Shown here: positions 2,084-11,956 of the stretch, piece by piece | How the letters are laid out: each line of letters begins with the position of its first letter | Position numbering within the stretch: the first letter of the stretch is position 1 | Assembly (NCBI GenBank): GCA_902635895.1 | Contig: CACPPV010000006.1 | Coordinates: 1-64,000, forward strand | Reading direction: 5' to 3' | Source: an uncultured Bacteroidota bacterium | GTDB taxonomy: Bacteria > Bacteroidota > Bacteroidia > Flavobacteriales > Flavobacteriaceae | Length of the DNA stretch: 64,000 nucleotides | The notes under the pieces: generated by a model | Seen by the model: only the letters and a program-made list of their open reading frames with translations | Told to the model about the DNA's origin: nothing | Databases searched by the model: none | Made by a program: the position numbers and the translations under genes

Positions 2084-3058
2084 TTATTGATTTAAAGTGA
2101 AAAAATTTGAACAGGTTGAGTCAAATTCTAGTAAATCTTTTTTGTTAAAATTTAGATATACTTTATTGTTTTTTTCGATTGCATAATCGTTGAAAAAGGT
2201 CCATGTCTCACCATTTACTTTGGCGCTAATTTTATATTCTTTTCCAGCAAATAAGCATTTTTCAACTTCACCTTCAAAATCAGAAGACTCTGTAACCATA
2301 ATTTTTTCAGGCCTTAAATAAAATATCTTATCGTTAATATTAACTTGATTCAAATCCCCTAAAATCTTTGCACAATAACAGTTAACAGGATTACAATACA
2401 TACTTACTGGATTATCGTATTGTTGAAGAATACCTGCCTTAAAGATTAAAATTTTATCAGAAATATTAAATGTGTCTCTGATATCATGCGTAACTAAAAT
2501 AGTGGTAGTTTGGGTTTCTTTTACAATTTTATGAATTTCTTCCTGAATACTTAGTTTTATATTGGAATCTAAGTTGCTAAATGGTTCATCAAGTAATAAA
2601 AGATCTGGCTCTCTAACTAAAGCTCTAGCTAAACAAGCACGTTGCTGTTCCCCTCCAGAAAGTTGATCCGGATATCTATTGCTCAAGTTCTGAAGATTAG
2701 TTAAACCTAAGATATATTCGATCTTAGATAAAAACCTTTTCTCTAGGTTAATTTTTATATTTTCTAGAACTGTTAAATGTGGGAAAAGTGGATAGTCCTG
2801 AAAAACAAACCCAATTTTTCTTTCATTTGGAGTTACAAAAGTATTTTGATTGTCTAAAACTTTTCCATTTAGCTCTATTGAACCAGAATTGATTTTTTCT
2901 AAACCAGCTAAACATTTCAAAAAAGTAGTTTTACCAGAACCACTTTCTCCAATAAAAGATACAATATCACCTTCTTTAACAGAAAAATTTAAATCTCTGA
3001 TTAAGTGCTCGTCTTGGCTGTAATATTTTTTTAAATTGTTAACTTTTAGAAACATCAA
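2084..3058 (-). CDS. fbpC: Fe(III) ABC transporter ATP-binding protein
   Basis: ATPase subunit that powers ferric-iron import across the inner membrane. Walker A is GESGSGKT at residues 37-44. The Q-loop VFQDYPLFPHLTVLENI, the signature LSGGEQQRACLARAL and Walker B LLLLDEP follow in order, and a short TOBE-like C-terminal part contains YLRPEKIMV. The length (324 residues) is typical of FbpC/PotA-type ATPases. It overlaps the permease gene by 20 bases, so translation is coupled. The iron assignment comes from the linked binding protein, since ATPases of this class also serve spermidine, thiamine and sulfate systems. Confidence 0.9.
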   Translation of the reverse strand: MMFLKVNNLKKYYSQDEHLIRDLNFSVKEGDIVSFIGESGSGKTTFLKCLAGLEKINSGSIELNGKVLDNQNTFVTPNERKIGFVFQDYPLFPHLTVLENIKINLEKRFLSKIEYILGLTNLQNLSNRYPDQLSGGEQQRACLARALVREPDLLLLDEPFSNLDSNIKLSIQEEIHKIVKETQTTTILVTHDIRDTFNISDKILIFKAGILQQYDNPVSMYCNPVNCYCAKILGDLNQVNINDKIFYLRPEKIMVTESSDFEGEVEKCLFAGKEYKISAKVNGETWTFFNDYAIEKNNKVYLNFNKKDLLEFDSTCSNFFTLNQ

Positions 3059-4652
3059 TCTGGTTATTTACAATTTTTTTCAAAAATATTAACAATATTA
3101 TTCCCATCATAACAATAATTAAAGAATAAATTGAAGATTTAGGAATCATTTCCTCAATAGCGTATTCATAGGTTTGTACAGCAAGAGTATCAAAATTAAA
3201 AGGTCTTAATATCAATGTTATTGGCAATTCTTTCAAAATATCAACAAATGTTATTAAAAAAGCTATAGCAATAGCAGATTTATTTATTGGAAAATGTATC
3301 GATTTAAATAATTTTAATGGACCCATGCCTAAATTCACAGCAGTATCGTCAAATGAGCTGGGATGTTTTTCAAAACTGGACTTTAATGGAGAAATTCCTA
3401 CAGCCATATATCTTATTACATAGGCATATATTAAGACAAAAAAAGATCCAATTAAAATTTCTGATTTAAAAGGAGTTGAAGAGAATAATATTATTAAAGA
3501 CAAACCAATAACTGCTCCTGGAAGAGCATAGGATAATGATATAGCCTCGTTAAAAATTGTTAACACTTTATTTTTAACTATTCTTCTTAAAAATTGAAAG
3601 TATACAGAAATTGCAATAATTATAAATGTTGCAATTAAAGAAACTAAAATTGTGTTTTTAGATAAATTAAAGACTTTAACAAATTCAATTCTTTCAAATT
3701 CATAAACAACGTTTCCTGAGATAAATAATATTGGAACAATAAAGCCAAAAATAATTGGAACCAAGCAAAAAAAATGAATTATAAATTTATTTTTAGTACT
3801 TGGAATTTCCTCTTTAAAATTTTTTGTATTTGACTGATAGCTGTAATTATATTTTGAATTAATAAACCTTTCTAAAACAAAAAATATCAAAACTGTAAAA
3901 AATAAAAAAACAGCGAGAAGAGATGCAGTTTCTACATCTTGCATTGAATACCATGATCTAAAAATGCCACTTGTAAATGTATTAACTCCAAAATATTTTA
4001 CTGCTCCATATTCATTTAAGACTTCCATGACAACCAAAAAAAGACCTGAAAAAATCGAGACTCTTGAAAGAGGTATAACAATTTTAAAAAATGTTTTTGA
4101 TTTTGACATTCCTAAACTTTTTGACAATTCAATGTAGTTTGATCCTATTAGTGAAAAAGAAAGTCTACAAGCTGTATAAATGTAGGGATATAAAGCTAAG
4201 GCCATTATAATACCCAAAACCTCAATTTGAAGATAATCTTGATTTAGTAATTCTGAAAAGTTTGAAAAATACTTTCTTGTAAAACTTTGAATCGGTCCAG
4301 TGAAACTTAAAATATCACTGTAAGTAAATGCCATTATGTATACCGGGATAGCTAGTGGAAGGTAAAGCAGAAAATCGTAGATATTTTTGCCTTTAAATTT
4401 AAATGTGCTTACAAACCATGCAGGAACTACTCCAAACAATAAGGCAAAAAAAGATGTTATTGCTACAAGATATACCGTATTGAACGAATAATCATACAGT
4501 AAATTATCCCATAAATATTTAAAATTTGAACTATCAATACTTGTTGTACTAACAATTAAAGTTAGTATTGGTAAAATGATAATTATAGAAAGTAAAACTG
4601 TTGATAATGTTAACTTTCTATTGTTTGAGTAATATTTTTTCTTTATTTCCAA
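3039..4652 (-). CDS. fbpB: Fe(III) ABC transporter permease, two fused halves
   Basis: A 537-residue inner-membrane permease with about 12 predicted hydrophobic segments, the usual length for the FbpB/ThiP type in which two permease domains are fused. Each half carries an EAA-like loop that docks onto the ATPase: GMSKSKTFFKIVIPLSR near residue 182 and GMGPLKLFKSIHFPINKS near 443. It overlaps fbpA by 10 bases and fbpC by 20, forming a tight three-gene unit. The transported species is inferred from the binding protein. Confidence 0.9.
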   Translation of the reverse strand: MEIKKKYYSNNRKLTLSTVLLSIIIILPILTLIVSTTSIDSSNFKYLWDNLLYDYSFNTVYLVAITSFFALLFGVVPAWFVSTFKFKGKNIYDFLLYLPLAIPVYIMAFTYSDILSFTGPIQSFTRKYFSNFSELLNQDYLQIEVLGIIMALALYPYIYTACRLSFSLIGSNYIELSKSLGMSKSKTFFKIVIPLSRVSIFSGLFLVVMEVLNEYGAVKYFGVNTFTSGIFRSWYSMQDVETASLLAVFLFFTVLIFFVLERFINSKYNYSYQSNTKNFKEEIPSTKNKFIIHFFCLVPIIFGFIVPILFISGNVVYEFERIEFVKVFNLSKNTILVSLIATFIIIAISVYFQFLRRIVKNKVLTIFNEAISLSYALPGAVIGLSLIILFSSTPFKSEILIGSFFVLIYAYVIRYMAVGISPLKSSFEKHPSSFDDTAVNLGMGPLKLFKSIHFPINKSAIAIAFLITFVDILKELPITLILRPFNFDTLAVQTYEYAIEEMIPKSSIYSLIIVMMGIILLIFLKKIVNNQIDVSKS

Positions 4653-5668
4653 CCTGTTTTGTCAAATATACGTATTGCATCATTTCTCTTGATTCCAAGC
4701 ATATTAAGATCTAAAGGATCTTTTTTAAAGTCTCCCCATTTTTGAACAATTTCATCAGGTTCAACAGAGGGATTTACAGAATATTCATAACTATTATTGA
4801 CATAAGTCTTCTGTGCATTTACACTAGTTAAATACTTAATTAGTTTAATAGCATTTTCTTTGTTAGGAGCATTTTTTGTAATGGCTATACCTGAAACATT
4901 TATGTGAGCCCCTCTTTCATCTTCGCCTTGATTTGGGAAAAAAACAGAAACCGACTTACCTGCATTAATTTCTTCTTCTTTTTCAGAAGATAAAAGTAAT
5001 CCTATGTAATATGAATTGACAATGGCAATATCACCTTGTCCAGCCGCTATTGCTTTTACTTGGTCTCTATCACTTCCTTTTGGATCTCTGGCAAAATTAG
5101 AAACTACTGCTTCTGACCATTTTGATGTTTCTTCATATCCTAAATTAGCTATAAGTGAAGACATCAACGCTTGATTATAAGCATTTGATGAAGATCTAAC
5201 CAATAGCCTATTTTTCCATTTTTCATTTGCTAAGTCTTCATAAGTAGACAATTCGTTTTTGTCAACTCTATCGTTGCTGTAAACAATAACTCTTGATCTA
5301 TATGTTAGTGGAACCCAAAAGTTATTTGGATCTAATAAATCAGGATCTATATTTTCGTAATCAAAATCATCACTTATTTTTTGAAATAAATTCATATCAC
5401 TTCCTTGCCATAGCTTACCAACATCAACTGTTATAAAAAGATCTGCAGGTGAATTTTCCCCTTCATTTTTCATTCTCTGAATTAGTTCATCAGCATTTGC
5501 TTTTGTTACATTAACTTTTATTCCAGTAAGTTCTTCAAAGTTTTTGTATTGAATTTCGTCTACTTTATAATGTCTTTGACTGTATATGTTTATTTCATTA
5601 GAGTCTTTTTTATTTGGCACACAACTTGCACAAATAAGAACTAATATTAGGTATAATTTATATTTCAT
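4643..5668 (-). CDS. fbpA: Fe(III)-binding lipoprotein of the ABC importer
   Basis: Extracytoplasmic binding protein for ferric iron. It has the start IYSQRHYKVD typical of FutA/FbpA proteins and the tandem tyrosines in VNSYYIG (about residue 220) that are iron ligands in that family. I start it at the ATG at 5668, which gives a clean lipoprotein signal peptide ending in CASC. An in-frame TTG at 5686 lies on the likely promoter and adds a polar extension. The product is 341 residues, normal for the family. It is the first gene of the importer operon and is divergent from the DUF4856-imelysin operon. Confidence 0.92.
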   Translation of the reverse strand: MKYKLYLILVLICASCVPNKKDSNEINIYSQRHYKVDEIQYKNFEELTGIKVNVTKANADELIQRMKNEGENSPADLFITVDVGKLWQGSDMNLFQKISDDFDYENIDPDLLDPNNFWVPLTYRSRVIVYSNDRVDKNELSTYEDLANEKWKNRLLVRSSSNAYNQALMSSLIANLGYEETSKWSEAVVSNFARDPKGSDRDQVKAIAAGQGDIAIVNSYYIGLLLSSEKEEEINAGKSVSVFFPNQGEDERGAHINVSGIAITKNAPNKENAIKLIKYLTSVNAQKTYVNNSYEYSVNPSVEPDEIVQKWGDFKKDPLDLNMLGIKRNDAIRIFDKTGWK

Positions 5669-5686
5669 TTTAAAAAATTTGGACAA

Positions 5687-5725: not shown

Positions 5726-5756
5726 TTATTTAGACTAATTATAAATAATTATTTAT
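5726..5756. promoter_or_regulatory. Palindromic operator candidate between divergent iron operons
   Basis: Two overlapping symmetric elements fill the middle of the divergent gap: TTATTTA-N9-TAAATAA at 5726-5748, and the perfect 16-base palindrome ATAAATAATTATTTAT at 5741-5756. The second overlaps the spacer and -7 region of the plus-strand promoter candidate (TTTA, 21 bases, TATATTAG at 5754-5761). The AT-rich symmetry and position suit a Fur- or DtxR-type iron repressor site, but no regulator can be named from sequence alone. Confidence 0.5.
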
Positions 5757-5788: not shown

Positions 5789-6973
5789 ATGAAAAAAAAT
5801 TTAACTATTAACAAGTACTTTTTATTACTATTCTCACTTTTAACAATTTCATGTAGCTCTGACGAAGAAGACATTCCTATACAAATTGTTGAACCTAGCA
5901 CTTACGATTTTCTAAGAGATGGTCAATCAACTGTTTCTTTTTCAGGTCAAACTACCAGACTAAACCAAGCAGATGCAATTTATAAAGCTTTAAATTCAGA
6001 AGCTGACGATGGTTCTGGAGATCAAAAGTTTTACACTGAAGCGCAAATTGACGAAATGTTTGCTGATGGTTCAGGGTTTATTTCCTCATTATTAAATGGA
6101 ACTGGTAAAAAAGTAAGAAGTAAAACGTCTGCTGCATGTGCAGGAGGAAACTCTTCTACTCAAGCTCAATTCGACGATCAAATCGCAGATTTTGCCAACA
6201 ATGTTGTTCCAGCTTGGACAGCGGATGCAAGTGCAGGAGTTGCAGGTAAATTGACTGATGCAACAGGAAGATCAATTCATGTAAACTCAAAAGGTCACGA
6301 AATTGATCAAACATTTATTAAAGGTTTAATTGGTGGAATGTGCGTAGATCAAATTGTAAATAATTATTTACAACCATGCCAACTTGATTCAGGAACCAGA
6401 AAAGAAGATAATACAAACGGAGTTTTATCAAGCGGAAAAAATTACACCGATATGGAGCACAAATGGGACGAAGCTTTTGGATACTTATATGGTCAAGAGG
6501 AAGACTACAAAAGAGCAGATCTTGCCTCAAGCCCAAATGGAAAAGGAACTACTTTAAATAAGTATTTCAAAAAAATTAATGAAAGTAATATGCCTGGTAT
6601 TTCTGAAATAGTTTATAATGCCTTCAAAAGAGGAAGAGCCGCAATCGTAGCAGGCGACTACAATGTAAGAGATGCTCAAGCTAATATTATTAAAATTAAT
6701 TTATCAAAAGTAGTTGGTTTCAAGGCTATTGATTATTTAAACGGATACATGTCTAAAATGGCAGCTGGTAATAAAGCAGATGCATTTCATGCTCTTTCCG
6801 AGGGATATGGGTTTATTATGAGTTTACAATTTACAAATAACGGAAATGATGTTCCTTATTTTACTAAATCTGAAGTTGACGCTATGTTAGCCAAAATGGA
6901 TGATTTTTGGACAGTACAAGATTCTGATTTAAGTTCAATGGTTGATGATATTAAATCAAGATTCAATATATAA
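5789..6973 (+). CDS. DUF4856-family lipoprotein of the iron locus
   Basis: A 394-residue exported lipoprotein. The signal peptide ends in TISC at about residue 22, followed by an acidic SSDEED linker. The body matches my memory of DUF4856 proteins, which are repeatedly found beside imelysins in Bacteroidota. Features include FIKGLIGGMCVDQIVNNYL near residue 177 and MEHKWDEAFGYLYG near 220. It probably sits on the outer membrane and takes part in iron acquisition, but its biochemical role is unknown. It is the first gene of a plus-strand operon divergent from fbpABC, and a terminator hairpin separates it from the imelysin gene. Confidence 0.85.
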   Translation: MKKNLTINKYFLLLFSLLTISCSSDEEDIPIQIVEPSTYDFLRDGQSTVSFSGQTTRLNQADAIYKALNSEADDGSGDQKFYTEAQIDEMFADGSGFISSLLNGTGKKVRSKTSAACAGGNSSTQAQFDDQIADFANNVVPAWTADASAGVAGKLTDATGRSIHVNSKGHEIDQTFIKGLIGGMCVDQIVNNYLQPCQLDSGTRKEDNTNGVLSSGKNYTDMEHKWDEAFGYLYGQEEDYKRADLASSPNGKGTTLNKYFKKINESNMPGISEIVYNAFKRGRAAIVAGDYNVRDAQANIIKINLSKVVGFKAIDYLNGYMSKMAAGNKADAFHALSEGYGFIMSLQFTNNGNDVPYFTKSEVDAMLAKMDDFWTVQDSDLSSMVDDIKSRFNI

Positions 6974-7006: not shown

Positions 7007-7037
7007 AAAAAACAGTGGGTCTAACTCCCACTGTTTT
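7007..7037 (+). terminator. Intrinsic terminator between DUF4856 and imelysin genes
   Basis: The stem AACAGTGGG / CCCACTGTT with loop TCTAACT is flanked by A and T runs, giving a strong rho-independent terminator. It should reduce expression of imelysin and downstream genes relative to DUF4856. An apparent GTG start at 7015 for the imelysin gene lies inside this hairpin and is therefore not used. Confidence 0.8.
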
Positions 7038-7038
7038 T

Positions 7039-7046
7039 TACTTTTG
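7039..7046 (+). promoter_or_regulatory. Candidate -7 element before imelysin
   Basis: TACTTTTG fits TAnnTTTG exactly and immediately follows the terminator T run, 4 bases before the ATG at 7051. No TTTG -33 element is present because the terminator stem occupies that place. The site could give leaderless transcripts or could be chance. Confidence 0.35.
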
Positions 7047-7050
7047 CGCT

Positions 7051-8181
7051 ATGAAAAATCTATTTAATTTTATTATCACATCATGTATAATTTTTTCATT
7101 TATTTCATGTTCTAGTGACAGTGATGAAGATATAGATCAGATTCCTCAGTTTGATAGATCCTCTATTTTAAAAAATTATGCTGATAATATTATTATCCCG
7201 AGATATAGTGACTTCCAATCTGAAGTATTGAAATTAAAATCAGATATAGAAAACTTTACGAAAGAACCTAACACCATTAACTACGACAAAGCACATAATA
7301 GTTGGTTCGAAACCTATAAAAAATGGCAACATGTGGAAATGTTCAACATCGGAAAAGCCGAACAGATCATGTATCTTAATACTATAAATACCTATCCAGT
7401 TGACGAATTAAGAATAAATAACAACATTAATTCTAAAAAATTAGACTTGTCAAATGAAAACGATTGGTCTTGTCAAGGCTTAAGTGGAATAGATTTCATG
7501 CTTCACGGAGTTGAAGGAACAAAGGAGGAAATTATTGAAAAGTACCTAACTGATCCTAATTATTCTGATTATTTAAATAATCTAATTGAAATAATTTCTA
7601 ACAATACAAATACAATCGTTGAAGATTGGACAACAAACTATAAAGATACTTTTATTCAATCCTCAGGAAATTCAAATTCAAGCTCACTTAATATGCTGAC
7701 AAATGATTTTGTTTATTATTTTGAGAAAGGATTGAGAACTAACAAAATTGGGATTCCAGTTGGCTATTTTTCAGGGGGAAATACACTTGCTGAAAAAGTT
7801 GAAACATACTACTCGTCTAAAAATTCGATACAAAATGTTTCGAGAGATTTAGCAGCTGAAGCATTAATTGCGTCTGAAAATCTATTTATTGGAAAATCAT
7901 CTTCAGGTTCCACAGGCCCTAGTCTTAAGTCTTACCTTGACTATTTATATTCCTCAAATGTCAATGAAAATAATTTAAGCCCAATTATTCTCAATAATTT
8001 TCAAAAAGCAAAAATTGCAATAAACGAATTAGATGAAAATTTCATTTATCAAATTAATAATGATAAATCTAAAATGTTAAATGCATTCGACAAACTTCAA
8101 TCTATAGTTGTAAATATGAAAACAGATATGTTATCTATATTAAGCATTCAAGTTGATTACATAGATGCTGATGGAGATTAA
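7051..8181 (+). CDS. Imelysin-family lipoprotein
   Basis: Imelysin (M75-like, IrpA/EfeO superfamily) protein of 376 residues, starting at the ATG at 7051. The lipoprotein signal peptide ends in FISC, followed by an acidic SSDSDED linker. The conserved family segment appears as SGIDFMLHGVEG near residue 145, containing the HxxE of the GxHxxE motif. Imelysins are iron-regulated surface or periplasmic proteins in which this motif is proposed to bind metal, and most are probably not active peptidases. Here it lies between DUF4856 and a vitamin K carboxylase-like gene, followed by a TonB receptor, so a role in iron capture at the outer membrane is likely. Confidence 0.92.
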   Translation: MKNLFNFIITSCIIFSFISCSSDSDEDIDQIPQFDRSSILKNYADNIIIPRYSDFQSEVLKLKSDIENFTKEPNTINYDKAHNSWFETYKKWQHVEMFNIGKAEQIMYLNTINTYPVDELRINNNINSKKLDLSNENDWSCQGLSGIDFMLHGVEGTKEEIIEKYLTDPNYSDYLNNLIEIISNNTNTIVEDWTTNYKDTFIQSSGNSNSSSLNMLTNDFVYYFEKGLRTNKIGIPVGYFSGGNTLAEKVETYYSSKNSIQNVSRDLAAEALIASENLFIGKSSSGSTGPSLKSYLDYLYSSNVNENNLSPIILNNFQKAKIAINELDENFIYQINNDKSKMLNAFDKLQSIVVNMKTDMLSILSIQVDYIDADGD

Positions 8182-8199
8182 TAATATTTTAAATTCATT

Positions 8200-9558
8200 T
8201 TGAAAATAATTTCATCTTACTTATCAAAGACTCAAGAGTCATCAAGTCTAGCTTTATTCAGGTTAGGCTTTGGTTTTTTAATGACCTTTAGCATTGTAAG
8301 ATTTTGGTTAAAAGGTTGGATTAAGACAATGTACATCGACCCATCTTTTCATTTTACATTCTATGGATTTGAATGGGTTAAGCCAGTTGGAGAATATACA
8401 TACATATTGTTTTTCATATGTGGTTTATCAGCATTTTTAGTTGCTATAGGTTATAAGTACTACATTGCTATAATTACATTTTTTTTGTCATTTACATATA
8501 TCGAATTGATGGACAAAACCACTTATTTAAATCATTATTATTTTGTGAGTATACTAAGTTTTTTGATGATCTTTTTGCCATGTAATTCATCATATTCAAT
8601 AGATTCCTTTATAAAAAAGAAATCGTTTAAATATTCACCAAAATGGTGTGTTGACTCTATTAAAACCCTTCTATTTATTGTTTATTTTTATTCAGGTTTA
8701 GCTAAAATTAACCGGGATTGGTTATTTGAAGCTCAACCACTAAAAATATGGTTAGCAACTGGAAGTTATGATCTTCCCATAATTGGGTCCACTTTAATGC
8801 AGCAAGAATGGTTTCATTATTTCATGAGTTGGGGTGGTATGTTTTACGATTTATTAATACCATTTATATTATTATACAAACCAACAAGAATAATAGGATT
8901 TTCTCTTGTTGTATTTTTTCATGTATTTACAGCAGTACTATTCCCAATTGGAATGTTCCCCTACATAATGATAATTTCAACAATCATATTTTTCAGTTCT
9001 AATACCCATGAAAAAATTTTAAAATTTATTTTAAAACCTTTTAAAAATACAATCAAAAAAACAATAGAAATTGATAACATTAAAATAAAAAAAAACAAGT
9101 TTGCTATTTCATTGATTTCTCTATTTTTTGTTGTGCAATTTTTATTTCCGTTTAGATATGCTATCTATCCTGGAGAATTATTTTGGAATGAGGAGGGGTA
9201 CAGATTTTCTTGGCGTGTAATGTTAATGGAAAAAAGAGGATATACTACATTTAAGGTTGTTGATAATTCAAATGGAAATTCTTTTTTTGTTAGAAACGAT
9301 GAATTTCTTACTGAATTTCAAGAAAGACAAATGAGTTTTCAGCCAGATTTCATTTTAGAATATGCACATTTTTTAGGAGATCATTATAACAATAAAGGGT
9401 TGAACGATATTGAAATTTACGCAGAAAGTTATGTTGCACTAAATGGAAGAATCAATAAAAGATTTGTGAATCCTAAAATTGATTTATTAAAAGAAAAAAG
9501 AGGATTTAATTCAAAACACTGGATTATAGATTTAAATGAAGAAATTAATTATTTGTAA
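8200..9558 (+). CDS. Vitamin K-dependent gamma-carboxylase-like (HTTM) membrane protein
   Basis: A 452-residue integral membrane protein with a TTG start that gives a good N-terminus. It aligns by eye with the whole core of human GGCX. The segment DKTTYLNH at residues 105-112 matches DKTSWNNH of GGCX, which holds the lysine I recall as the catalytic base. FYSGLAKINRDWL at 163-175 and FHVFTAVLFPIGMFPYIMI at 240-258 match later segments, and the soluble C-terminal part with GYRFSWRVMLMEKRGYTTFKV also corresponds. Known members oxidise vitamin K hydroquinone to carboxylate glutamates or act as epoxidases. The bacterial role here is unknown. The gene overlaps the TonB receptor gene by 23 bases, so the two are translationally coupled. 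Confidence 0.87.
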   Translation: MKIISSYLSKTQESSSLALFRLGFGFLMTFSIVRFWLKGWIKTMYIDPSFHFTFYGFEWVKPVGEYTYILFFICGLSAFLVAIGYKYYIAIITFFLSFTYIELMDKTTYLNHYYFVSILSFLMIFLPCNSSYSIDSFIKKKSFKYSPKWCVDSIKTLLFIVYFYSGLAKINRDWLFEAQPLKIWLATGSYDLPIIGSTLMQQEWFHYFMSWGGMFYDLLIPFILLYKPTRIIGFSLVVFFHVFTAVLFPIGMFPYIMIISTIIFFSSNTHEKILKFILKPFKNTIKKTIEIDNIKIKKNKFAISLISLFFVVQFLFPFRYAIYPGELFWNEEGYRFSWRVMLMEKRGYTTFKVVDNSNGNSFFVRNDEFLTEFQERQMSFQPDFILEYAHFLGDHYNNKGLNDIEIYAESYVALNGRINKRFVNPKIDLLKEKRGFNSKHWIIDLNEEINYL

Positions 9559-11956
9559 AATTTTATTGCTGTCTCTTTTCCAGAAATCATTCACACAAGA
9601 AAAGATTTCAGGCTATATTTTTGATGAAATAACTAATGATCCAGTCGAAAATGTTACCGTTTTTGATAATTACAGTGATGGCGTGGTTTTTTCAAATAAA
9701 AATGGATTTTTTGAGTTTGTAAAAAATAAAAGAACTATTGAAATAAGTTTTTATAAGGAAGGTTACAATCTTTTTAGTTTAACTGATAGTATAAAACCAA
9801 AAAATAATATTATAAAATTATCTTCGAGAATTGAAAAACTTAACGAGGTAGTTGTCAGAGCCAACAGAAAAAAGATTTTTCAAATTAAAAGAATGTTAGA
9901 TTTTGAAGGCACATCTGTATTTGCTGGAAAAAAAAATGAAGTAATTCTTTTGGACCTTTCAATGGCTAACATGGCATCTAATAATGCCCGTCAGATTTAT
10001 AATCAAATTCCTGGATTAAATATTTATCAAAACGATGATGGTGGATTACAATTAAATATTGGAGGAAGAGGACTTAATCCTAATAGGACATCAAATTTTA
10101 ATACTAGACAAAATGGCTATGACATTAGCGCAGACGCACTTGGATATCCGGAAAGCTATTATACCCCACCAGCAGAAGGTTTGAGAGAAATACAGATTTT
10201 ACGAGGAGCTGCCTCACTTCAATATGGAACTCAATTTGGAGGACTTGTTAATTTTGTAATGAAAAAACCCAATTACGACAAAAACATTGAACTCATTACT
10301 AGAAATACATTAGGGTCAAATAATTTGTACACTAATTTTACAAGCCTTAGTAAAAGTGGAAAAAAATTAAGTTATTATGGGTACATCAATTATAAGAAGG
10401 GTGATGGATTTAGGGATAATTCTAAATTTGAATCGACAAACACTTTTCAGTATTTAGAATATAAATTTAACAATTCAACTACCTTAAGTTCAGAGATCAC
10501 ATACCTAAGTTATCTGGCTCAACAAGCTGGAGGACTAACTGATGAAATGTTTAAAAATAACCCTTACCAAAGTAATCGTTCCAGAAACTGGTTTGAGATA
10601 GAATGGCTACTATATAGCCTAAGATTTGATAAGGAAATTTCAAAAAACATAAACTTTAGTTTTAATTTTTTTGGCCTAGAAGCTAAAAGAAATTCACTTG
10701 GTTTTAGAACCAATAGAGTAAGCCAAATTGATTCTGGCGAGGAAAGAGATTTGATTAAGGGTGAGTTTTCGAATTATGGACTAGAAACTCGCTTATTGAC
10801 CAATTACAAAATATTAAATAAAAAATCTTTTTTTCTATTTGGAATTAGATATTATAATTCAAATTCTTCAAGTGCCCAAGGCCCTGGATCTAAAGATTCT
10901 AATCCAAATTTTAATTTTCAAAACTTAACATTTCCTAACTATACAAATCAATCAGATTATTCATATCCAAATCAAAATATATCATTATTTGGTGAAAATA
11001 TTTTTTATCTGAGCGATAAAATATCACTTACACCAGGATTCAGATTTGAAAAAATAAAAACCAAAAGTGATGGTTTTTATAAAAAAATTAATTTGGATGC
11101 AGCAGGTAATGTCATCTTTAATGAAACATATAAAGAAAATGATGAAAAAAATAGAGACTTTTTACTACTTGGATTAGGCTTGAGTTATAAATTGAATAGA
11201 AATCTTGAATTGTATTCAAACATTAGCGAGAACTACAGATCAGTTACGTTTGCGGATATAAGTACTATCAATCCTGCTTATGCAATTAATCCAGAAATTG
11301 ATGATGAAAAAGGGTATACTTTTGATTTAGGTTTTAGAGGAAATTTTAAAAGAAAAATTTCTTACGATGCTAATATTTTTCTTTTAAAATATGAAGATAG
11401 AATAGGATTTATTCAAAAAGTTTTCCCTGACGGCAATGTTAAAAGTGAAAGAGGAAATGTAGGTAATGCTGTAATAAGTGGAATTGAAACCTTATTGGAA
11501 TTTGATTTAAACGAAATAGTACTTAAAAACAATGACTTTGACTTTACTTTCTTTACAAACTATTCTTACATAAATTCAAGGTATTTAGAATCAGACCAAG
11601 TTGGTATTGAAGGAAAAAATGTAGAGTTTGTTCCTGATCATAATTTGAAAACTGGATTTAAATTTGGTTACAAAAATCTCTTAATAAACTTTCAATATTC
11701 TTACTTATCTAAACAATTCACTGATTCATCAAATGCAGAAAGCGGAAATTTAAGTGGAGTCATAGGTCAAATTCCATCATATGGACTTGCTGATTTATCA
11801 ATGTCTTACAAATTAAATAAAATGAAATTTGAAACTGGGTTGAATAATATATTTAACAAGGAATATTTCACAAGAAGAGCTACTGGATATCCTGGCCCTG
11901 GAATTATTCCCTCACCACCAAGAAATTTTTATTTAACAATTCAGTATAAATTTTGA
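9536..11956 (+). CDS. TonB-dependent outer-membrane receptor of the iron locus
   Basis: An 806-residue receptor. A signal peptide (about residues 1-20) is followed by a carboxypeptidase-regulatory-like fold (about 22-100), a plug domain (about 125-240, with SNNARQIYNQIPGLNIY and LREIQILRGAASLQYG) and a barrel of about 560 residues ending in the aromatic FYLTIQYKF. The plug resembles FecA-type ferric-siderophore or citrate receptors. Its start lies inside the end of the carboxylase-like gene. It ends 6 bases before the convergent dtd stop. The operon context with imelysin and the divergent Fe(III) importer argues for an iron chelate as ligand, but the exact ligand is not readable. Confidence 0.92.
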   Translation: MKKLIICKILLLSLFQKSFTQEKISGYIFDEITNDPVENVTVFDNYSDGVVFSNKNGFFEFVKNKRTIEISFYKEGYNLFSLTDSIKPKNNIIKLSSRIEKLNEVVVRANRKKIFQIKRMLDFEGTSVFAGKKNEVILLDLSMANMASNNARQIYNQIPGLNIYQNDDGGLQLNIGGRGLNPNRTSNFNTRQNGYDISADALGYPESYYTPPAEGLREIQILRGAASLQYGTQFGGLVNFVMKKPNYDKNIELITRNTLGSNNLYTNFTSLSKSGKKLSYYGYINYKKGDGFRDNSKFESTNTFQYLEYKFNNSTTLSSEITYLSYLAQQAGGLTDEMFKNNPYQSNRSRNWFEIEWLLYSLRFDKEISKNINFSFNFFGLEAKRNSLGFRTNRVSQIDSGEERDLIKGEFSNYGLETRLLTNYKILNKKSFFLFGIRYYNSNSSSAQGPGSKDSNPNFNFQNLTFPNYTNQSDYSYPNQNISLFGENIFYLSDKISLTPGFRFEKIKTKSDGFYKKINLDAAGNVIFNETYKENDEKNRDFLLLGLGLSYKLNRNLELYSNISENYRSVTFADISTINPAYAINPEIDDEKGYTFDLGFRGNFKRKISYDANIFLLKYEDRIGFIQKVFPDGNVKSERGNVGNAVISGIETLLEFDLNEIVLKNNDFDFTFFTNYSYINSRYLESDQVGIEGKNVEFVPDHNLKTGFKFGYKNLLINFQYSYLSKQFTDSSNAESGNLSGVIGQIPSYGLADLSMSYKLNKMKFETGLNNIFNKEYFTRRATGYPGPGIIPSPPRNFYLTIQYKF

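What the first reader, a model, noticed from the sequence alone, without database searches (positions are those of the whole stretch)
8200..9558. Vitamin K gamma-carboxylase homologue embedded in an iron-uptake operon
Seen: the HTTM-type protein matches the human GGCX core end to end as I recall it. DKTTYLNH (105-112) retains the lysine reported as the catalytic base in GGCX. FYSGLAKINRDWL, FHVFTAVLFPIGMFPYIMI and the C-terminal soluble domain also correspond. It sits between an imelysin lipoprotein and a TonB receptor and overlaps the latter by 23 bases. Flavobacteria use menaquinone (vitamin K2), so the cofactor would be at hand. Inference: it may carboxylate glutamates (making Gla-like metal ligands) on the acidic linkers of the adjacent lipoproteins (SSDEED, SSDSDED) or on the receptor, or act as a menaquinone epoxidase linked to iron reduction. 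I know of no described system of this kind.
Basis: partly seen in the sequence, partly recalled or inferred. Interest (0 to 1): 0.82.

Follow-up and report, generated by a model that had tools for sequence, protein, structure and literature searches.

The report
Vitamin-K-carboxylase-like enzyme in iron-uptake operon
A bacterial relative of the human blood-clotting enzyme that uses vitamin K is a fixed part of an iron-scavenging gene set across the Bacteroidota, and in many lineages an unrelated oxygen-using membrane enzyme has taken its place, which suggests that both do the same unknown finishing step for iron capture.

Summary
Window 8200-9558 encodes a 452-aa protein with both GGCX domains (HTTM and lumenal). 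Its model superposes on GGCX cryo-EM structures (TM 0.86). One correction: the catalytic base (GGCX K218) is K169 in FYSGLAKINRDWL, invariant in 63/63 operon relatives. The other catalytic-pocket residues are kept; the propeptide site and Arch domain are not.

The linkage is strong. DUF4856 > imelysin > HTTM > TonB recurs in fixed order across Bacteroidota, and a published Fur study of Riemerella found the corresponding operon induced by iron starvation.

New here: operons that lack HTTM carry an unrelated di-iron FA_hydroxylase-family membrane protein instead (16 of 18 HTTM-less operon genomes against 2 of ~72 with HTTM; at least 7 independent exchanges). Tenacibaculum has both. The two enzymes are therefore probably interchangeable. 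The constant partner of HTTM is an imelysin ending in DxDGD-COOH.

Most likely it is a menaquinol/O2-driven maturation enzyme for this imelysin system. The substrate is unproven; the imelysin tail is the best candidate, but it also occurs in Psychrobacter.

The parts
2084..5686 (-). Divergent ferric-iron/phosphonate-type ABC transporter: ATPase 2084-3058, fused double permease 3039-4652, substrate-binding lipoprotein 4643-5686. Context only; not part of the conserved cluster elsewhere.
   Evidence: Pfam ABC_tran, BPD_transp_1, SBP_bac_8; not found next to the operon in most relatives
5728..5746 (.). Fur-box-like palindrome ATTTAGACTAATTATAAAT in the divergent promoter region
   Evidence: 2 mismatches to the R. 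anatipestifer consensus of PMC5609570 (0.61 matches with up to 3 mismatches expected by chance in the window); suggestive only
5789..6973 (+). DUF4856 lipoprotein, weakly FEA1-related
   Evidence: PF16148 308.6 bits; NCBIfam FEA1_rel_lipo 26 bits, far below cut-off 250
7015..8181 (+). Imelysin (Peptidase_M75) lipoprotein; the likely true start is the ATG at 7051
   Evidence: PF09375 82 bits; listed with a GTG start, with lipoprotein signal MKNLFNFIITSCIIFSFISC beginning at 7051
8158..8178 (+). Invariant C-terminal tail YIDADGD-stop of the imelysin; candidate substrate or docking tail
   Evidence: DGD at the extreme C-terminus in nearly all operon imelysins with HTTM and 14/14 with FAH, nearly all named loci and 19 of 20 loci of a wider phylum sample; also in PDB 3pf0
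8200..9558 (+). VKGC/GGCX-like HTTM enzyme, predicted to face the periplasm
   Evidence: Pfam, PDB phmmer, AF2 plus Foldseek, charge distribution of loops
8530..8535 (+). N111-H112, equal to GGCX N159-H160 (Glu pocket)
   Evidence: 63/63 invariant
8704..8706 (+). K169, equal to GGCX K218, the catalytic base
   Evidence: 63/63 in operon relatives and 29/29 in the other VKGC-like clade
9536..11956 (+). TonB-dependent siderophore/Fe-dicitrate-type receptor
   Evidence: PF00593, PF07715; TIGR01783 144.7 bits, below cut-off

Best explanation
The gene encodes a true VKGC-fold membrane enzyme whose active site faces the periplasm. It is a dedicated maturation enzyme of an iron-uptake system made of a DUF4856 lipoprotein, an IPPA-type imelysin lipoprotein and a TonB receptor. 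By homology it oxidises menaquinol with O2 to create a strong base that deprotonates a carbon next to a carboxylate; carboxylation may follow. Its function can be taken over by an unrelated O2-using, di-iron FA_hydroxylase-family membrane protein, so the required outcome is probably an oxygen-dependent change of a carbon-acid site that both chemistries can deliver, for example turning a carboxylate into a bidentate iron ligand (malonate-like or alpha-hydroxy-acid-like). The most likely target is the imelysin, with its exposed invariant C-terminal D-x-D-G-D tail as first candidate. Shown: fold, kept residues, linkage, exchange. Inferred: activity, target and product.
For: Active-site residues N159, H160, K218, W223, G259, F286 and F299 of GGCX are invariant in 63 operon homologues. 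TM-score 0.86 to GGCX. Loop charges put the active site in the periplasm. The order DUF4856>M75>HTTM>TonB is kept in about 60 sampled loci, 71 of 80 named loci and in a wider phylum sample. The corresponding Riemerella operon is iron- and Fur-regulated (PMC5609570). HTTM-less operons carry FAH instead: 16 of 18 genomes, against 2 of ~72 with HTTM, Fisher p about 1e-13. At least 7-8 switches on the operon tree. FAH sits exactly in the HTTM slot in L059 and in Tenacibaculum, where HTTM remains downstream. HTTM also follows a DGD-tailed imelysin where DUF4856 is absent or unrecognised: L115, L116, Persicobacter L317. The tail is missing in ordinary imelysins of genomes without either enzyme and is cleanly lost in L156.
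Against: The DGD tail also ends the gammaproteobacterial imelysin of PDB 3pf0, so it is a subfamily trait; whether that genome has HTTM or FAH was not testable here. The FAH His boxes are predicted to be cytoplasmic while the HTTM site is periplasmic, which is awkward for one shared protein substrate. No residue in the partner proteins is specific to HTTM operons. No activity data exist. VKOR does not co-occur.
Confidence: 0.5

Rival explanations
1. HTTM and FAH act on a membrane lipid, quinone or small chelator, not on a protein. Both make or modify a lipid-soluble molecule, reachable from either membrane face, that the lipoproteins and receptor bind.
For: Opposite predicted sides of the two active sites. 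No co-evolving residue in the partner proteins. FA_hydroxylase-family members of known function act on lipids (own knowledge). FAH can sit elsewhere in the genome.
Against: No other biosynthetic genes in the operon. HTTM stays directly behind the DGD-tailed imelysin even without DUF4856 or receptor. GGCX-type chemistry known so far acts on peptides.
Confidence: 0.27
2. Classical Glu to Gla carboxylation on the operon lipoproteins or receptor.
For: Intact GGCX Glu and quinol pocket; periplasmic site; the substrates would be exported partners.
Against: Acidic linkers match the lipoprotein export signal (PMC5080379). Conserved Glu residues of DUF4856 (E171, E338) and imelysin (E263) are equally conserved in FAH operons. 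Propeptide contact Y425 not conserved, R436 and N158 replaced. The replacement enzyme would not be expected to make Gla.
Confidence: 0.12
3. HTTM works only as a menaquinol epoxidase/oxidase that tunes local redox or O2, without covalent change of a partner.
For: Quinol pocket kept. From memory, the Leptospira VKGC homologue was reported to epoxidise with altered or no carboxylation.
Against: Does not explain the tight imelysin linkage or replacement by a di-iron hydroxylase; the invariant N111/H112 Glu-pocket residues would be superfluous; no VKOR linkage.
Confidence: 0.08

Closest known systems
Human gamma-glutamyl carboxylase GGCX (VKGC)
   Same: HTTM plus lumenal domain, fold (TM 0.86), catalytic base, Glu and vitamin K pocket residues, extracytoplasmic active site
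   Different: About 250 residues shorter, no Arch domain, propeptide contact not conserved, K217 is Ala, C99-C450 disulfide lost, M401 is Val; sits in an iron operon; substrate unknown
Leptospira VKGC homologue (own recollection, not checked here)
   Same: Bacterial VKGC-family protein
   Different: Linkage and replacement pattern not known for it
Linaridin HTTM proteins (PMC9927463; peptide epimerase role from memory)
   Same: Bacterial HTTM protein assumed to take part in peptide maturation
   Different: Different cluster; no iron context
Imelysin iron operons (PA4370-PA4373, EfeUOB; PMC3143127)
   Same: Fur-linked imelysin; IPPA-type imelysin also ends in DGD (3pf0)
   Different: That paper's text mentions no carboxylase or HTTM partner
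Riemerella anatipestifer RAYM_09779-09794 (PMC5609570)
   Same: TonB receptor, VKGC, imelysin and hypothetical gene in a row, iron- and Fur-regulated
   Different: Reported as a table entry only; no function proposed

Membership tests
Vitamin K-dependent gamma-carboxylase (VKGC) | HTTM domain and VKGC lumenal domain | tested here: met
   242 and 197 bits
Vitamin K-dependent gamma-carboxylase (VKGC) | Catalytic base K218 | tested here: met
   K169, 63/63; role from PMC12589487
Vitamin K-dependent gamma-carboxylase (VKGC) | Glu pocket N159, H160, Y395 | tested here: met
   N111, H112 63/63; Y334 Tyr 53 / Phe 10
Vitamin K-dependent gamma-carboxylase (VKGC) | Naphthoquinone pocket F286, F294, F299, W223, G259 | tested here: met
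   Invariant except F294 (59/63); M401 is Val
Vitamin K-dependent gamma-carboxylase (VKGC) | Overall GGCX fold | tested here: met
   TM 0.86 to 9wfc
Animal GGCX subgroup | Propeptide exosite, K217 and Arch domain | tested here: not met
   Y425 not conserved, K217 replaced by Ala, no sequence beyond GGCX 502
Vitamin K-dependent gamma-carboxylase (VKGC) | Glu carboxylation coupled to quinol epoxidation | not testable with these tools
   Needs enzyme assay or mass spectrometry
VKGC/VKOR vitamin K cycle | VKOR partner | tested here: not met
   Few HTTM genomes have PF07884 and the window's genome has no hit; no enrichment against genomes without HTTM (own genome 68% complete)
Imelysin iron-uptake operons | Peptidase_M75 lipoprotein with TonB receptor | tested here: met
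Imelysin iron-uptake operons | EfeB-like di-heme peroxidase partner | tested here: not met
   Absent from the window operon; a ~470-aa gene between the two imelysins of the second imelysin cluster was not assigned to a family here
FA_hydroxylase (replacement enzyme) | PF04116 with His boxes | tested here: met
   81-85 bits; invariant His at 140, 144, 153, 156, 157, 225, 246, 249, 250

The most novel reading that the evidence does not exclude
Two unrelated O2-dependent membrane enzymes, one VKGC-type using menaquinol and one di-iron hydroxylase, interchangeably install an iron-chelating group next to a carboxylate on a surface imelysin (for example beta-carboxy- or beta-hydroxy-aspartate in its DxDGD tail). 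This would be a protein-borne siderophore and the first defined role for a VKGC in bacteria.
Probability: 0.17. Interest if true: 0.95.

Novelty: new variant of a known kind. Interest (0 to 1): 0.74.

Why it matters
Why bacteria carry vitamin K-dependent carboxylase homologues is, as far as I know, an open question. This places one such clade in one pathway, iron uptake, across the Bacteroidota. It also offers a natural control group (operons with the replacement hydroxylase) and a short list of possible targets, so the function can be tested directly. If a protein target is confirmed, it would be a new route to metal-binding protein modification and would bear on the origin of the blood-clotting modification.

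Tried and rejected
K106 as catalytic base: rejected by alignment. Acidic linkers as Gla sites: match the lipoprotein export signal (PMC5080379). Search for Glu residues or any residues specific to HTTM operons: no HTTM-specific position; one weak FAH-side position each in DUF4856 and imelysin. VKOR co-occurrence: none. DGD tail as a trait exclusive to HTTM/FAH operons: weakened by PDB 3pf0. FAH fold comparison: no PDB match and a weak model, inconclusive. PDB sequence search with FAH: nothing. Plasmid searches for gammaproteobacterial IPPA-type imelysins: only a distant one from Pseudoalteromonas, so the Psychrobacter question stays open. Literature: no paper in the held library joins imelysin with HTTM or sterol desaturase, and one joins it with VKGC. 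Strict mutual exclusion was rejected: three Tenacibaculum loci carry both enzymes.

Full report
1. What is there. It carries Pfam HTTM (242 bits) and VKGC_lumenal_dom (197 bits). Sequence search of the PDB finds human GGCX only, E about 1e-37, covering GGCX 54-502. An AF2 model (mean pLDDT 89, pTM 0.89) superposes on GGCX cryo-EM structures with TM-score up to 0.86 over the whole query; no other fold is significant. The only HTTM match in the held part of this genome (68% complete) is this one.

2. Which residues are kept. I aligned 63 operon homologues with GGCX. From PMC12589487, K218 is the base, N159/H160/Y395 hold the Glu, F286/F294/F299/W223/M401 and others line the naphthoquinone pocket, and K154 is a structural contact to D442/Q446. 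In the operon family N111 (N159), H112 (H160), K169 (K218), W174 (W223), G213 (G259), F240 (F286), F253 (F299), M341 (M402) and D383 (D442) are invariant; Y334 (Y395) is Tyr in 53 and Phe in 10. K217 is Ala, N158 is Leu, R436 is Gln or Met, M401 is Val, and the propeptide contact Y425 is not conserved. So the chemistry should be kept while substrate recognition has changed. Loop charges (inside loops positive) agree with a periplasmic active site.

3. Linkage. In 396 genomes of the same class (at least 90% complete apart from the window's own), PF22777 occurs in 110, DUF4856 in 92 and M75 in 142; DUF4856 and PF22777 co-occur in 72 genomes (Fisher p about 2e-32, counts read from the tables). 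Reading about 120 neighbourhoods, the order DUF4856>M75>HTTM>TonB on one strand recurs in 60 loci, with a few more that lack one recognisable member. Among 80 named GTDB loci, 71 show it exactly, in genera such as Kordia, Lacinutrix, Polaribacter, Maribacter, Winogradskyella, Salegentibacter and Aquimarina. A wider sample of the phylum shows it too: 19 of 20 loci read have the imelysin directly upstream. In the window's own genus PF22777 was found in 5 of 22 draft genomes.

4. Regulation. A published RNA-seq study of Riemerella anatipestifer lists four consecutive genes, TonB receptor RAYM_09779, 'vitamin K-dependent gamma-carboxylase' 09784, 'putative lipoprotein imelysin' 09789 and hypothetical 09794, with log2 ratios of 2.1 to 3.1 on iron restriction, in the table of Fur-regulated genes (PMC5609570). 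I did not verify by sequence that 09794 is DUF4856. A Fur-box-like site lies at 5728-5746.

5. The replacement enzyme. Operons without HTTM carry a roughly 310-aa membrane protein of Pfam FA_hydroxylase (PF04116) with invariant His boxes. Within the neighbourhoods read, complete operons had HTTM (60) or FAH (14), never both, and two had neither. Those two genomes (G109, G224) have a close FAH orthologue elsewhere, while HTTM-bearing genomes of the same genus have only distant paralogues. Over the class sample the FAH orthologue (E up to 1e-35) occurs in 18 genomes: 16 operon genomes without operon HTTM, and 2 with HTTM where the match is weaker (35-42% identity) and unlinked. Of 18 HTTM-less operon genomes, 16 have FAH; G248 is 91% complete, and in G400 the operon runs off its contig. 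A third genome with a cut-off operon, G404, cannot be judged. Fisher p is about 1e-13. A tree of the concatenated partner proteins needs 8 changes of enzyme type, 7 forced by well-supported branches. In L059 FAH sits exactly between imelysin and receptor. In Tenacibaculum finnmarkense and T. dicentrarchi the order is imelysin>FAH>TonB>HTTM, with both present. I read this as repeated non-orthologous replacement, so the two enzymes probably fulfil one role.

6. Looking for the substrate. No position in DUF4856, imelysin or receptor is characteristic of HTTM operons; conserved Glu residues are equally conserved in FAH operons. The acidic stretches after the lipobox match the published surface-export signal (PMC5080379). 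What stands out is the imelysin C-terminus...[YF]x-D-x-D-G-D (or S-G-D-G-D) at the very end of nearly every operon imelysin with HTTM and all 14 with FAH. Ordinary imelysins in genomes lacking both enzymes do not have it, and one operon-like imelysin in a genome without either enzyme ends cleanly before it (L156). HTTM also follows a DGD-tailed imelysin in loci where DUF4856 was not recognised (L115, L116, and a Persicobacter plasmid, L317). So the constant partner of HTTM is this imelysin. Caution: the gammaproteobacterial imelysin of PDB 3pf0 also ends NSTDGD, disordered in the crystal (PMC3143127). The tail is therefore a subfamily trait, and its tie to the enzyme is partly confounded.

7. 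Mechanism. Inferred: HTTM oxidises menaquinol with O2 and uses the resulting base to deprotonate a carbon next to a carboxylate, perhaps adding CO2. FAH would hydroxylate an equivalent site. Both outcomes can create a bidentate hard-metal ligand. A difficulty is that FAH His boxes are predicted on the cytoplasmic side. That favours either a C-terminal tail, which could meet an enzyme on each side around export, or a lipid-soluble small molecule (rival 1). VKOR does not accompany HTTM, so any epoxide is recycled otherwise or simply replaced.

8. Verdict. Its specific Gla proposal is unlikely. The exchange with an unrelated oxygenase-family protein is, to my knowledge and in the held literature, undescribed.

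Noticed in passing
L051, L054, L109-L111: A second VKGC-like clade in Flavobacteriaceae lies between a riboflavin kinase/FAD synthetase gene (ribF, Pfam-confirmed in L109) and a gene whose sequence looks like seryl-tRNA synthetase. Members of the non-operon clade keep the K218-equivalent lysine in 29/29 and mostly N159/H160.
   Followed up: partly
L300, L305, L308 (Tenacibaculum): Both enzymes in one operon: imelysin>FAH>TonB>HTTM, with FAH in the usual HTTM slot; looks like replacement caught in progress.
   Followed up: partly
L200-L204, L211, L213: A second imelysin cluster: IrpA-like imelysin, a ~470-aa gene (family not assigned here), then another DGD-tailed imelysin, usually without HTTM or FAH beside it.
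   Followed up: partly
window 7015-8181: The GTG start of the imelysin ORF is probably too early; the ATG at 7051 gives a proper lipoprotein signal peptide.
   Followed up: no
window 2084-5686: Divergent ABC transporter with a fused double permease and a lipoprotein substrate-binding subunit, resembling ferric or phosphonate uptake systems.
   Followed up: no
L050 (G015): In a same-genus genome the imelysin is split into two ORFs and the carboxylase-like frame has an in-frame TGA; decay or sequencing error.
   Followed up: no
L316:4482-6350 (Paracoccus albus plasmid): A more distant HTTM protein sits divergently beside a DUF393 protein; unrelated context.
   Followed up: no
L138 (G089): DUF4856 present without imelysin, HTTM, FAH or TonB receptor recognised nearby.
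   Followed up: no
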